DNA of 15,384 bases from Candidatus Rokuibacteriota bacterium (GTDB taxonomy: Bacteria > Methylomirabilota > Methylomirabilia > Rokubacteriales > JACPHL01). Location: contig JACPHL010000280.1 of the NCBI GenBank assembly GCA_016188625.1, forward strand, positions 1-15,384. The letters run 5' to 3'. Position 1 is the stretch's first letter. The number at the start of each line of letters is the position of its first letter. Positions 1,146-10,994 of the stretch are shown in pieces. Under the pieces are notes generated by a model. That model ran no database searches and was not told where the DNA came from. It saw only the letters and a list, made by a program, of their open reading frames with translations. A program made the position numbers and the translations under genes.

Positions 1146-2519
1146 ATGAGCATGAAGAAGTCGCGTGGGTACGAGATCCCGAAGGTCTTCGAGGAGGCGC
1201 ACGCCCGCGGGTTCTCCGGCTTCCAGCTCGCCCCCAACCCGGAGGAGCTCCTCGACCCCAGGGACCCCGACCGCACGCTCCGCCCCGAGCGTTACAGCCA
1301 CGAGACGGTCCTCAAGCGGCGGGCCCCCAACGCCAACCGCCAGGCCTCCCTGGCGGAGATCGAGGCCCTCAAGGCGAAGGCGGAGCAGGTCCTGGCCGGC
1401 CCCCACCGGTACGAGGCCCAGGCCGTCATCGGCGGGATGCCGGTCCGCCTCCGCACCAACTCCCCCCACGCCTCCAACTTCTGGCGCCGGAACTGGTTCC
1501 TCACCGACCCCGCCGCCGTGGATGCGGCCGCCGGGCGGTACGGGGTCGCGGTGGTCCGGATGTGGTGCGCCCTCGAGCGGCGCGACCCCGACTCGGCCGG
1601 GGCCTACTACTGCCGGGAGACCAGCGAGTGCGTCTTCTGGAACACCGACTACTACGGCCAGATGAAGAGCTGGGCCCTCGGGGCCGCGGGGGCCGAGCTG
1701 GCCCGCTTCGGGATCCACTCGATCCACGGCGCCTGCGTGGACATCAACGGGCACGGCGTCCTCATCATCGCCCCGACCGGCACCGGGAAGTCCACCTACA
1801 CCCAGCTCCTCGCCTACGTCGAGGCCCTGGACCCCCGCTTGACGGGCGAGATCAACTCGGACGACTGGGTCTACGTGAAGGACGGCGTGGCCACCCCCTC
1901 GGAGCGGCACATCTACGTCAGGACCAACGCCGTCCGCGACGACCTGGACGAGGCGGCGATGGATCCCGGGATGGCCAAGCTCAAGGGGATCTTCGACGCG
2001 AGCCCCGCCGAGAACGTCCCGGTCGGGGCCGGCCGCCGCCTCTACAGCGAGGTCCCCAACTCCCGCTGCATGATCGACCCCGGGACCCTGGCCCGGGTCA
2101 CCTTCAGGACCCCCATCGACCTGATCGTCCTCCTCCGCCGCGACGACCGCTCCCCGTTCGAGCGCTTCCTCTCCACCGTGGAGGCCCTCGCGGTCCTCGA
2201 GGAGGGGGAGTTCACGGTCCAGCCGGGGGCGGGGCCGAAGGAGCAGTGGGGGAAGCTCGCCAAGGAGCCGTGGTACAACCCCTACCTCCTCCGCCCGGAC
2301 CGGGAGTTCGAGCGGCGGATGTTCGCCTCCTACCAGGACGTCCACGGGGCGCGCTACCTGATCTACAACACCGGGGCCGCGGTCTGCGCCCGGGAGTTCG
2401 GGATCAAAAAGCCTGTCGAGGCCCTGACCCACGAGGACTACCAGCGGATCATCGAGGGGACGGGCCGGCGGATCCTCGAGCGCCTCGAGGAGGTCGCCGC
2501 GGCGAAGCGCCGCCGGTAG
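1146..2519 (+). CDS. P-loop kinase-like protein related to HPr kinase / ATP-dependent PEP carboxykinase
   Basis: A 457-residue protein with a clear Walker A motif, APTGTGKST (residues 209-217, Lys215), following a beta-strand GHGVLIIA. Downstream NSDDW (Asp239-Asp240) is placed like the metal-binding acidic pair of the PEPCK/HprK fold. The order GTGKST, then SDD, then arginine-bearing segments (SERHIYVRTNAV, NSRCMIDP, VLLRRDDRSPFERF) is that of HprK and ATP-dependent PEPCK, but overall it is neither standard enzyme. The N-terminal 200 residues are unassigned. The ATG at 1146 has a strong ribosome site (GGAGAGGAG) just upstream. It lies 55 bp after the E2 gene and may be co-transcribed. No HPr or other PTS gene is in view, so the substrate is unknown; a small-molecule or protein kinase, or a PEPCK-like enzyme, are all possible. 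Confidence 0.7.
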   Translation: MSMKKSRGYEIPKVFEEAHARGFSGFQLAPNPEELLDPRDPDRTLRPERYSHETVLKRRAPNANRQASLAEIEALKAKAEQVLAGPHRYEAQAVIGGMPVRLRTNSPHASNFWRRNWFLTDPAAVDAAAGRYGVAVVRMWCALERRDPDSAGAYYCRETSECVFWNTDYYGQMKSWALGAAGAELARFGIHSIHGACVDINGHGVLIIAPTGTGKSTYTQLLAYVEALDPRLTGEINSDDWVYVKDGVATPSERHIYVRTNAVRDDLDEAAMDPGMAKLKGIFDASPAENVPVGAGRRLYSEVPNSRCMIDPGTLARVTFRTPIDLIVLLRRDDRSPFERFLSTVEALAVLEEGEFTVQPGAGPKEQWGKLAKEPWYNPYLLRPDREFERRMFASYQDVHGARYLIYNTGAAVCAREFGIKKPVEALTHEDYQRIIEGTGRRILERLEEVAAAKRRR

Positions 2520-2612: not shown

Positions 2613-2640
2613 GCAGTTTTCCTTAATAGTTTATGCATAG

Positions 2641-2656
2641 AAGTAGCAATCTACTT
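2641..2656. repeat. Perfect inverted repeat AAGTAG-CAAT-CTACTT
   Basis: A 6-bp perfect inverted repeat with a 4-base spacer in the AT-rich leader of the HTH gene, abutting the first TATAAT box. It could be an operator half of an autoregulated promoter or a small RNA hairpin. Confidence 0.5.
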
Positions 2657-2707
2657 ATAATAAAGTATAATTTCCTTCTTGACTATGACAATCATTGTGA
2701 TAAACTT
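2656..2707 (+). promoter_or_regulatory. AT-rich promoter region of the HTH/nucleotidyltransferase pair
   Basis: Two perfect TATAAT hexamers occur at 2656-2661 and 2666-2671, without good -35 boxes at the usual distance. A third candidate is TTGACT (2679-2684), 16 bp, TAAACT (2701-2706). The last would start transcription at or inside the beginning of the gene, giving a leaderless or very short-leader mRNA, in keeping with the lack of a Shine-Dalgarno sequence. Which one is used cannot be decided from sequence. Confidence 0.5.
2685..2701. promoter_or_regulatory. Imperfect 17-bp palindrome, candidate operator
   Basis: The sequence is atgACAATcATTGTgat, a perfect 11-bp core (ACAAT C ATTGT, 2688-2698) extended by two more paired positions on each side after a G/G mismatch. 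It fills the spacer between TTGACT and the likely -10, a few bases before an HTH gene. This is the usual place and size for an XRE-type dimer site, so autorepression is a reasonable inference. Confidence 0.55.
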
Positions 2708-3408
2708 TGAGCGAGATGCCGGGACGGGCTCTGAAGATGGCACGTTTAAAACGGGGGTGGAGCCAAACGGAGGCTGCTGCTCGTCTGGGTGTCTCCCAGG
2801 CCTATCTCGCCATGCTTGAAAGCGGTAAGCGACGACTTCCGCCCCGTCTCGCTCGACAGGCCATGAGGCTCTACGGTCTACCGCCAACGGTTCTGCCGCC
2901 ATCCGGCTCTGTCGCAAAGAGGACGGCTAACGCCGAGACCTTGGCAAAGCAGCTTGCAGCATTGGGATACCCAGGCTTTGCCTACCTTCGCCTGCAAGGC
3001 GTTCCGCGGAAGAATCCTGGTGAAGTGTTGCTAACGGCTCTGGCCCAGGAAGATCTGGAGCCACGGGTGGTGGAGGCCCTTCCCTGGCTTCTTCTCCAGT
3101 ATTGGGAACTTGACCGGGCCTGGCTGGCCCGGGAGGCAAAACTGCGAGATCTCCAAAACCGATTGGGGTTCGTTGGCGGCCTGGCGCGGCGGCTTGCAGA
3201 AAGGGCGGGGAACGAGAAAATGGTCCGGGCGTTGAGCGAGCTGGAAGCGGAACTGGATCGAAGTCGGCTTGCGCGAGAGGATACGTTGTGCCGATCCTCC
3301 ATGCCAGAACGGGAACGGCAGTGGTTGAGGGAGTACCGGCCGCGGGAAGCAAGGCACTGGAATTTACTTACCGACTGGAGACCAGAGGTTCTTCCCTATG
3401 CAGCCTGA
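2707..3408 (+). CDS. XRE-family helix-turn-helix protein, putative antitoxin/regulator
   Basis: A 233-residue protein. Residues 7-60 form a Cro/C1-type HTH (GRALKMARLKRGWSQTEAAA, then RLGVSQAYLAMLESGKRRLP), the second part being the recognition-helix region. The remaining 170 residues are a helical, charged domain (ALGYPGFAYLR, NPGEVLLTALAQEDLEPRVV, REAKLRDLQNRLGFVGGLAR) that I cannot assign to a named fold. The start is TTG at 2707 or ATG at 2716; neither has a clear ribosome site. The next gene begins 11 nt before this stop, which implies co-translation. Base composition is visibly less GC-rich than in the flanks, suggesting transfer. By arrangement (HTH gene first, nucleotidyltransferase second, palindrome in the promoter) it would be the antitoxin and autoregulator of a two-gene module. 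The HTH is firm; the antitoxin role is inference. Confidence 0.8.
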   Translation: MSEMPGRALKMARLKRGWSQTEAAARLGVSQAYLAMLESGKRRLPPRLARQAMRLYGLPPTVLPPSGSVAKRTANAETLAKQLAALGYPGFAYLRLQGVPRKNPGEVLLTALAQEDLEPRVVEALPWLLLQYWELDRAWLAREAKLRDLQNRLGFVGGLARRLAERAGNEKMVRALSELEAELDRSRLAREDTLCRSSMPERERQWLREYRPREARHWNLLTDWRPEVLPYAA

Positions 3409-3952
3409 CCTCCCGCGACCGTGGTCTGACTTCCTCGCGGACCTGGACAGGCTGCTCCCCGAGCCGGTGCAACTTCACTGCCTTGGAGGATTTGTTCTGA
3501 TAGCTTGCTATAAGATCCCTCGACCGACCGCAGATATCGATTGCGTCGCGGTTGTGCCCCAGCGTCAATTGGAAACTTTACTGCGCCTTGCCGGACCAGA
3601 GTCACCGTTGGCTAAAAAGCTCAAGATTTACTTCCAATATTCCGCCGCGACTCCTCTTCCCGACCATTATGATGCACGTCTAATCGAACTGTTCCCCGGG
3701 AGATTCAAGAATCTGCGGTTGTTCGCTTTGGACCCATACGATTTGATTCTATCGAAGCTACACCGAAACAGCGAAAAGGATCGGCACGACGTGGGATATC
3801 TGGCAAAGACCCTTGCTTTAGATCCCGTAGTGCTGCGGGAACGCTACCAGCAGGAGTTGCGCCCCTACGTGCTCGGGCGATCCGAATGGCATGACCAAAC
3901 GCTTGAGATGTGGATCGAGGCCTACTTCTCTGGTTCCAAGCCTCCGAACTGA
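3398..3952 (+). CDS. DUF6036-like nucleotidyltransferase, putative toxin
   Basis: A 184-residue protein of the minimal nucleotidyltransferase type. HCLGGFVL (Gly30-Gly31) is the glycine pair after the first helix, and PTADIDCV carries the metal-binding Asp46-x-Asp48. DPYDLILSKL and KDRHDV (112-132) match the C-terminal helical signature of DUF6036/AbiEii-like proteins. Such enzymes transfer NMPs to tRNA or protein targets, and several act as toxins. The ATG at 3398 overlaps the HTH gene by 11 nt in another frame, so translation is probably coupled. Its last 31 bp overlap the 3' end of the convergent alcohol dehydrogenase gene. Catalytic residues look intact. The family is fairly sure; toxicity and target are inference. 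A housekeeping nucleotidyltransferase is less likely given the partner and the composition. Confidence 0.78.
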   Translation: MQPDLPRPWSDFLADLDRLLPEPVQLHCLGGFVLIACYKIPRPTADIDCVAVVPQRQLETLLRLAGPESPLAKKLKIYFQYSAATPLPDHYDARLIELFPGRFKNLRLFALDPYDLILSKLHRNSEKDRHDVGYLAKTLALDPVVLRERYQQELRPYVLGRSEWHDQTLEMWIEAYFSGSKPPN

Positions 3953-5057: not shown

Positions 5058-5246
5058 CCCGAGCGGGAGGCGCCGGCCCCTCGCTCCACACGCTCCGCGG
5101 CGCACCCGTCAGTGGCTCGCCGGGCGGGGCCCCTCCTCCTTCGTTCCGAGCCCGCGAGCCGGCTTCCCCACCCGGCTCGCTCACGACGGGGACCCGCGCC
5201 GCTCCGCTTAAACGTTCCGCTCGGGGCCGACGCCTCCCCGCTCGGG
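5058..5246. repeat. Dispersed MITE-like repeat with terminal inverted repeats, copy A
   Basis: About 189 bp, near 90% identical by eye and in the same orientation as 10805-10990; the first 40 bases are identical. The ends are inverted repeats: CCCGAGCGGGAGGCG on the left and CGCCTCCCCGCTCGGG on the right, with the pairing continuing inward (CGGCCCC / GGGGCCG). An inner arm (GCCGGGCGGGG with CCCCACCCGGC) could also pair, so a transcript would fold over its whole length. No reading frame stays intact between the copies, so it is non-coding. No target-site duplication was recognised. Confidence 0.8.
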
Positions 5247-8039: not shown

Positions 8040-8058
8040 CGGAGGGGAGGTGAAATCC

Positions 8059-8406
8059 ATGTGTCGGCGAATCCTGGCGGTCGTCACCCTCCTCAGCTTC
8101 TTCATGGTCTTCGGCAGCGCGGTGGGGGTCCTGGACGTCGAGGCCGCGTCGCACGCCAAGCAGCCCTGCGCGGCGAAGCAGCCCTGCGCGGCCAAACAAC
8201 CCTGCGCGGCCCAGCCGTGCGCCGCCAAGCAGCCCTGCGCGGCCCAACCGTGCGCGGCGAAGCAGCCGTGCGCGACGAACCCCTGCGCCGCCAAGAACCC
8301 GTGCGCGGCGAAGCAACCCTGTGCCGCCCAGCCGTGTGCCGCCAAGAACCCCTGCGCCGCGAAGAACCCCTGCGCCGCCAACCCGTGCGCGGCGAAGAAG
8401 AAGTAG
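8059..8406 (+). CDS. Small exported Pro-Cys-Ala repeat protein
   Basis: A 115-residue protein. Residues 1-31 look like a signal peptide (CRRILAVVTLLSFFMVFGSA... VEA-AS). The rest is a low-complexity array of 14 units ending in PCA, with spacings AKQPCA, AQPCA, AKNPCA, TNPCA and ANPCA, finishing AAKKK. There is one cysteine per 5-6 residues and no hydrophobic core, so it is probably disordered or metal/thiol-bridged outside the cytoplasm. ATG 8059 is chosen because GGAGGGGAGG (8041-8050) lies at proper distance; an in-frame GTG at 8050 touches that site. It stands alone, with hairpins before and after it. I do not recognise a function. Metal or heme capture, redox buffering and envelope cross-linking are guesses. 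Synonymous changes between units suggest selection on the protein rather than a recent DNA slippage product. Confidence 0.75.
   Translation: MCRRILAVVTLLSFFMVFGSAVGVLDVEAASHAKQPCAAKQPCAAKQPCAAQPCAAKQPCAAQPCAAKQPCATNPCAAKNPCAAKQPCAAQPCAAKNPCAAKNPCAANPCAAKKK
8155..8400 (+). repeat. Coding tandem repeat, units of 15 or 18 bp
   Basis: Units of the type ccctgcgcggcgaagcag (18 bp) and a 15-bp variant encode the PCA array. Third positions vary between units (tgc/tgt, gcg/gcc, aag/aaa). Unit number may be prone to change by slippage. Confidence 0.85.
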
Positions 8407-10800: not shown

Positions 10801-10994
10801 AGCGCCCGAGCGGGAGGCGCCGGCCCCTCGCTCCACACGCTCCACGGCGCACCCGCCTATGGCTCGCCGGGCGGGGCCCCTCCTCTTTGTCCTCCGCTCG
10901 CCTGTCGGCTTCCCCACCCGGCTCGCTCATGGCGGGGACCCGCGCCGCTCCGCTTAACGTTCCGCTCGGGGCCGCCGCCTCCCACTCGGGCGCT
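10801..10994. repeat. Dispersed MITE-like repeat with terminal inverted repeats, copy B
   Basis: The better-preserved copy. The left end AGCGCCCGAGCGGGAGGCG (10801-10819) is the inverse of the right end CGCCTCCCACTCGGGCGCT (10976-10994) with one mismatch in 19. Over 30 bases (10801-10830 versus 10965-10994) the arms match at 26. The interior matches copy A (5058-5246) closely and in the same orientation. The element begins 3 bases after the YbaK-like stop and no target-site duplication was found. No transposase is present in the window, so any mobility would depend on one elsewhere. Confidence 0.82.

What the first reader, a model, noticed from the sequence alone, without database searches (positions are those of the whole stretch)
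2640..3952. AT-richer islet with an overlapping XRE-HTH / DUF6036-like nucleotidyltransferase pair: candidate toxin-antitoxin or defence module
Seen: a sharp drop in GC, an HTH gene and a minimal nucleotidyltransferase gene overlapping by 11 nt, intact GG and DxD motifs, and a palindromic promoter. Known: nucleotidyltransferases of the AbiEii, MenT and MNT groups act as toxins and are paired with HTH or other antitoxins. Inference: a mobile two-gene module in which the first protein represses the operon and neutralises the second. The 170-residue C-terminal domain of the HTH protein is not one I can name.
Basis: partly seen in the sequence, partly recalled or inferred. Interest (0 to 1): 0.7.

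Follow-up and report, generated by a model that had tools for sequence, protein, structure and literature searches.

The report
XRE–DUF6036 nucleotidyltransferase toxin–antitoxin pair
A bacterial genome carries a small acquired two-gene unit whose second protein is a predicted MenT-like toxin enzyme and whose first is its predicted partner antitoxin and on/off switch; the pair recurs across two bacterial phyla, and relatives repeatedly lose the toxin while keeping the antitoxin, as expected of a poison–antidote system.

Summary
The window is a Rokubacteriales metagenome-assembled contig (73% GC outside the islet). It holds a 1.3-kb islet at 56% GC with an XRE-HTH gene (true start ATG 2716, end 3408) overlapping by 11 nt a DUF6036 nucleotidyltransferase (NTase) gene (3398–3952). 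A palindromic operator (2684–2702) sits between the -35 and -10 boxes. Best reading: an autoregulated NTase toxin–antitoxin module. (1) 36 loci in Rokubacteria and Acidobacteriota keep both genes intact in this order. (2) The NTase model (pLDDT 93) best matches the MenT1/3/4 toxins and keeps R-x-T-x-D-x-D as in MenT1. (3) The operator arms covary. (4) In 19 loci the NTase is broken or lost beside an intact HTH gene; the reverse occurs once. (5) The unnamed C-terminal domain of the HTH protein also occurs on a winged-helix head beside another DUF6036 subgroup, so it is the likely toxin-binding part. Toxicity, target and neutralisation are untested. It fails the Pfam AbiEii cut-off and has no AbiEi or HEPN partner, so it is a new variant of a known kind, not an AbiE or MenAT member. 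An anti-phage role is possible but unsupported.

The parts
2684..2702 (.). operator palindrome TATGACA-N5-TGTGATA, overlapping the promoter
   Evidence: sequence; the arms covary in relatives: TATCACA/TGTGATA, TATTACA/TGTAATA, TATAACA/TGTTATA, TATAGCA/TGCTATA; Bryobacterales subgroup has the abutted form TGTAATATTACA
2679..2706 (+). predicted sigma-70-type promoter TTGACT-16-TAAACT (extended -10)
   Evidence: consensus scan; would give a near-leaderless mRNA (inference)
2716..3408 (+). antitoxin/repressor gene, 230 aa: XRE HTH (aa 1-60) plus unnamed C-terminal helical domain (aa 66-230)
   Evidence: Pfam HTH_3 E 2.5e-14; start conserved; AlphaFold pLDDT 94; C-terminal domain shared with winged-helix proteins upstream of other DUF6036 genes
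3398..3952 (+). predicted toxin gene, 184 aa DUF6036 nucleotidyltransferase
   Evidence: Pfam DUF6036 E 1.8e-13; AlphaFold pLDDT 92.9; best VIA-align matches MenT1 Z 10.0, MenT3, MenT4
3521..3541 (+). catalytic stretch R42-P43-T44-A45-D46-I47-D48
   Evidence: T44, D46, D48 invariant in 25/25, R42 in 23/25; same spacing as MenT1 R37-F38-T39-R40-D41-x-D43 (PMC11375011)
2616..3985 (.). low-GC islet; right edge lies at the 3' end of a zinc-type alcohol dehydrogenase gene
   Evidence: GC 0.557 vs 0.731; ADH homologues align only to about aa 330-339 of 354, so the window copy reads on into the islet

Best explanation
A two-gene, autoregulated toxin-antitoxin module. The second gene makes a minimal NTase of the DUF6036 family that, by analogy with MenT, would add nucleotides to an RNA (tRNA 3' ends being the likeliest target) and stop translation. 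The first gene makes a two-part antitoxin. Its XRE domain binds the covarying palindrome between -35 and -10 and represses the operon. Its C-terminal helical domain binds and silences the NTase; it is made first and translationally coupled through the 11-nt overlap. Shown here: both genes, their conserved pairing and co-divergence, the operator sequence, the predicted NTase fold and catalytic residues, and selective decay of the NTase gene. Inferred: toxicity, the tRNA target, direct binding and neutralisation, and repression.
For: Pair intact and in the same order in 36 loci of Rokubacteria and Acidobacteriota. HTH-protein C-terminal-domain and NTase distances correlate, r 0.86, 0 of 2000 permutations (shared ancestry contributes). 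NTase model: MenT1 Z 10.0 over 162 aa, then MenT3/TglT, MenT4, ANT(2''), JHP933. R-x-T-x-D-x-D plus invariant K120 and D128 parallel MenT1 R37/T39/D41/D43/K137/D152 (PMC11375011; the K and D152 equivalences are inferred). Operator scores 12-14 of 14 against shuffle maxima of 9-12 in most loci, with symmetric compensatory changes. NTase broken or lost with HTH intact in 19 loci, the reverse in 1: P = 2e-6 on a length-weighted null; in subsets not anchored on the HTH gene 8:1, P = 0.008. The C-terminal domain of the XRE protein matches that of winged-helix proteins upstream of other DUF6036 genes (hhalign prob 93, E 3e-7; 25 column shuffles and the reversal all under prob 3).
Against: No toxicity or binding data. 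Foldseek itself gave no match below E 0.001, so the MenT match rests on VIA-align Z about 10 and on motifs. Some breaks (L080 and L115 late frameshifts, L118 changed C-terminus) may be harmless or assembly errors; without L115 and L118 the unanchored subset is 6:1, P about 0.03. An intact HTH beside a dead NTase would also be expected of a regulator with other targets. The HTH gene is under purifying selection in all pairs compared (dN/dS 0.10-0.32), NTase-broken ones included.
Confidence: 0.74

Rival explanations
1. Regulated housekeeping or resistance enzyme: the NTase modifies a small molecule (such as an antibiotic, like ANT(2'')) and the HTH protein is a ligand-responsive repressor whose C-terminal domain senses that molecule.
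For: ANT(2'')-Ia and LnuA are among the structural matches (Z 6.6-7.5); autorepression fits a substrate-induced operon; the HTH gene survives NTase loss.
Against: MenT toxins match better (Z 10). The C-terminal domain follows DUF6036 genes across XRE and winged-helix heads, which fits a partner-binding domain better than a sensor. Repeated inactivation of the enzyme rather than of the repressor fits a costly gene product.
Confidence: 0.14
2. Anti-phage abortive-infection module of the AbiE type: the pair is silent until phage infection releases the NTase.
For: AbiEii is a distant relative of DUF6036 (window protein Pfam E 0.0013; best family member 6.4e-6), and AbiE systems are both TA and defence systems.
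Against: No AbiEi partner, no PADLOC hit for the window NTase, no phage, plasmid or viral-contig homologues found, no recognised defence genes beside it in the window. This is compatible with the TA reading, not exclusive of it.
Confidence: 0.1
3. Decayed or neutral acquired islet with no current function in this genome.
For: Single copy, GC unlike the host, no DUF6036 gene elsewhere in the genome; many relatives show decay.
Against: Both window ORFs are full length with all invariant residues and a top-scoring operator.
Confidence: 0.05

Closest known systems
MenAT1-4 of Mycobacterium tuberculosis (DUF1814/AbiEii NTase toxins)
   Same: Best structural match of the toxin (Z 10.0 to MenT1); R-x-T-x-D-x-D, including the threonine that is phosphorylated when MenA1 is present (T39; PMC11375011)
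   Different: Pfam AbiEii below cut-off; antitoxin is an XRE protein with an unnamed domain; no sequence match of the NTase to any PDB chain
AbiEi-AbiEii (type IV / AbiE phage defence)
   Same: DNA-binding antitoxin upstream of an NTase toxin, autoregulatory promoter (general knowledge)
   Different: No AbiEi domain found; toxin is shorter and DUF6036 rather than AbiEii
Xress-MNTss of Streptococcus suis (Xre-MNT TA, PMC8406773)
   Same: Xre antitoxin that binds its own promoter and neutralises an adjacent NTase toxin
   Different: MNTss is described as similar to kanamycin nucleotidyltransferase and toxic when sent to the periplasm; homology to this pair was not tested
MNT-HEPN modules (PMC2701414)
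   Same: Small NTase in a two-gene module
   Different: Partner there is HEPN, probably not a DNA-binding protein; no HEPN hit here

Membership tests
DUF6036 (PF19502) | score above the curated cut-off | tested here: met
   51.1 bits vs 23.6; 25 of 25 family members match
AbiEii / DUF1814 (MenT, AbiEii) | score above the Pfam AbiEii cut-off | tested here: not met
   19.2 bits vs 22.5
AbiEii / DUF1814 (MenT, AbiEii) | nucleotidyltransferase fold | tested here: met
   predicted model pLDDT 92.9; MenT1 Z 10.0, rmsd 3.6, 162 aligned; prediction, not a solved structure
AbiEii / DUF1814 (MenT, AbiEii) | GG/GS...(S/T)xDxD catalytic motif | tested here: met
   G30 G31, T44 D46 D48 invariant in 25
AbiE system | AbiEi antitoxin upstream | tested here: not met
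   only HTH families and chance-level hits in the window protein and in 43 homologues; no AbiEi Pfam model
MNT-HEPN | HEPN partner | tested here: not met
   no HEPN match in 43 homologues of the partner
Xre-NTase toxin-antitoxin pair | Xre HTH gene directly upstream of an NTase gene, conserved across genomes | tested here: met
Xre-NTase toxin-antitoxin pair | NTase toxic, HTH protein neutralises it | not testable with these tools
   needs expression assays
Xre-NTase toxin-antitoxin pair | autoregulation through an operator in the promoter | tested here: inconclusive
   conserved covarying palindrome over the promoter; binding not measured

The most novel reading that the evidence does not exclude
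The unnamed C-terminal domain is a portable NTase-antitoxin domain, found under XRE and winged-helix heads, that silences DUF6036 toxins by forcing autophosphorylation of the invariant threonine (T44), as MenA1 does to MenT1 T39. One neutralisation chemistry would then extend across NTase toxins with unrelated antitoxins.
Probability: 0.22. Interest if true: 0.66.

Novelty: new variant of a known kind. Interest (0 to 1): 0.45.

Why it matters
DUF6036 is a widespread 'nucleotidyltransferase of unknown function' family (61 of 199 sampled Acidobacteriota genomes have a match), and no paper in the held library names it. Tying one branch to a conserved, apparently autoregulated antitoxin, a MenT-like fold and a phosphoacceptor-type threonine gives the family a testable function. 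The shared C-terminal domain on two kinds of DNA-binding head points to a modular antitoxin domain, and the repeated natural toxin-only decay is independent evidence of toxin cost.

Tried and rejected
Plasmid, phage and viral-contig searches for carriers: nothing found. PADLOC and NCBIfam naming: no family for the NTase, only generic HTH names for protein 1. PHROGs: generic repressors only. A C-terminal-domain profile against PDB sequences: no match. Fold search of the whole HTH protein was filled by XRE domains, so the fold of the C-terminal domain alone is untested. Rfam: no RNA element in the window, so no sign of an RNA antitoxin. The comparison of type B (longer XRE) with winged-helix partners alone was weak (prob 20–33); the link runs through the window family.

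Full report
WHAT IS THERE. The window lies in a 2.6-Mb, 344-contig metagenome-assembled genome whose relatives are Rokubacteria/Methylomirabilota (organism titles). Between 2616 and 3985 GC falls to 0.557 against 0.731 elsewhere, with a 29%-GC leader. It holds two overlapping genes. Protein 1 (230 aa) starts at ATG 2716; the TTG at 2707 is not conserved, whereas ATG 2716 aligns with the starts of relatives. Protein 2 (184 aa, 3398–3952) overlaps it by 11 nt. Pfam names an XRE HTH in protein 1 and DUF6036 in protein 2; AbiEii is below its cut-off.

INSERTION. The right edge abuts a zinc-type alcohol dehydrogenase gene on the other strand. Relatives of that gene in 66 other genomes of the phylum align only to about residues 330–339 of 354, so the last 16–22 codons of the window copy are read-through into the islet and overlap the NTase 3' end. 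This suggests insertion at the ADH 3' end. No mobility gene was seen. A degenerate piece of a genome-wide 154-bp repeat lies just left of the islet.

PAIRING. In the same phylum 7 of 95 genomes (window included) have the intact pair. A scan of 84,980 species genomes with the HTH profile found 47 loci, nearly all in Rokubacteria and Acidobacteriota, plus one degraded copy in a Nitrospira bin. A search anchored on the NTase in 396 Acidobacteriota genomes found 22 close homologues; 21 have the HTH gene directly upstream and the other is cut by a contig end. Rokubacterial copies form one clade with two acidobacterial sequences as nearest neighbours, compatible with transfer between the phyla; the root is only a midpoint.

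DECAY. I counted gene status in distinct loci not cut by contig ends. Both intact: 36. HTH intact but NTase broken or lost: 19. These are G075/L049, G052/L053 and G089/L054 (internal deletions); G016/L050 (replaced after about the ninth codon by what looks like a HigB–HigA pair, named by eye); and L055, L056, L064, L070, L073, L078, L079, L080, L083, L088, L089, L092, L115, L118, L119. L078 has an in-frame deletion that removes the GG motif. HTH broken but NTase intact: 1 (L109). Both broken: 2 (L041, L095). A length-weighted null gives P 2e-6, but one search is anchored on the HTH gene. Using only the own-phylum genomes searched with both genes and the NTase-anchored set, the ratio is 8:1, P 0.008. 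Random assembly errors would hit both genes in proportion to length. This is what a toxin with a protecting antitoxin predicts; a regulator with other duties would also predict HTH retention.

OPERATOR. Upstream of the HTH gene nearly all loci outside one Bryobacterales subgroup have TATNACA-N4/5-TGTNATA, 5–37 nt before the start. The variable base changes on both sides together (C/G, T/A, A/T, and a second position in L074, L075, L094). The 14 Bryobacterales copies instead carry TGTAATATTACA, the same half-sites abutted, seen on reading their upstream sequences (L079 to L092). In the window the palindrome lies between TTGACT and TAAACT, so binding there should block RNA polymerase (inference).

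TOXIN. The AlphaFold model (pLDDT 92.9, 25 aligned sequences) has an NTase fold. Foldseek put H. pylori JHP933, AbiEi and MenT1 near the top but none below E 0.001. VIA-align put MenT1 first (Z 10.0, rmsd 3.6 Å, 162 aa), with MenT3/TglT, MenT4, ANT(2'')-Ia and JHP933 following. R42-x-T44-x-D46-x-D48 has the same spacing as MenT1 R37-F38-T39-R40-D41-x-D43; T39 is phosphorylated when MenA1 is present, and D41 and K137 are needed for activity (PMC11375011). T44, D46, D48, K120, R123 and D128 are invariant in 25 sequences. Equating K120 with K137 and D128/D131 with D152 is my inference. The R-x-T-x-D-x-D motif is also kept in the distant DUF6036 subgroups inspected.

ANTITOXIN. The model is confident (pLDDT 94): an XRE domain and a helical C-terminal domain with no Pfam name in 43 homologues. 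In Acidobacteriota other DUF6036 genes follow (B) longer XRE proteins, (C) winged-helix proteins, or small proteins without a recognised HTH. The C-terminal domain of the window family matches those of B (prob 96, E 1e-9) and C (prob 93, E 3e-7); reversed and 25 column-shuffled controls stay under prob 3. A domain that stays with DUF6036 while its DNA-binding head is exchanged is best explained as the part that contacts the toxin. Distances of this domain and of the NTase correlate (r 0.86), which shared descent alone could also give.

VERDICT. An autoregulated toxin–antitoxin module with a DUF6036 NTase toxin is the best explanation. It works like MenAT, AbiE and Xre–MNT pairs, but it is not a member of AbiE or MenAT by the features tested. 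Toxicity, target and mode of neutralisation are predictions.

Noticed in passing
window 5058-5211 and 10805-10957 (+), degenerate piece 2541-2625: A 154-bp GC-rich intergenic repeat with at least 40 copies at 90-100% identity in this 2.6-Mb genome (175 candidates, only 40 scored), with only short 76-91% pieces in 12 other genomes of the phylum. Looks like a lineage-specific dispersed element; its fold is not clearly better than shuffles.
   Followed up: partly
window 8050-8406 (+): 118-aa predicted secreted protein made largely of PCAAK/Q/N repeats (Cys-Ala-Ala rich) after a signal-like N-terminus; no Pfam match.
   Followed up: no
L036 5906-6700 / L050 (G016): In one relative the NTase gene is lost after about its ninth codon and a HigB/HigA-like pair follows the intact XRE antitoxin gene: a possible toxin swap at the same site (named by eye).
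   Followed up: partly
L145, L147, L151, L158 (Acidobacteriota): Other DUF6036 genes are preceded by a small conserved protein without a recognised HTH (LPGGDL..GL.DL..G.E..E.LLVA.GAPRLR), a further candidate antitoxin family.
   Followed up: no
window 1146-2519 (+): 457-aa protein with a P-loop-like stretch (IIAPTGTGKSTYTQ) and no Pfam match at E 0.001; intact gene next to the islet.
   Followed up: no
L079-L092 upstream regions: In the Bryobacterales subgroup the operator half-sites are the same but abutted (TGTAATATTACA) instead of about 5 nt apart, a change of operator geometry within one repressor family.
   Followed up: partly
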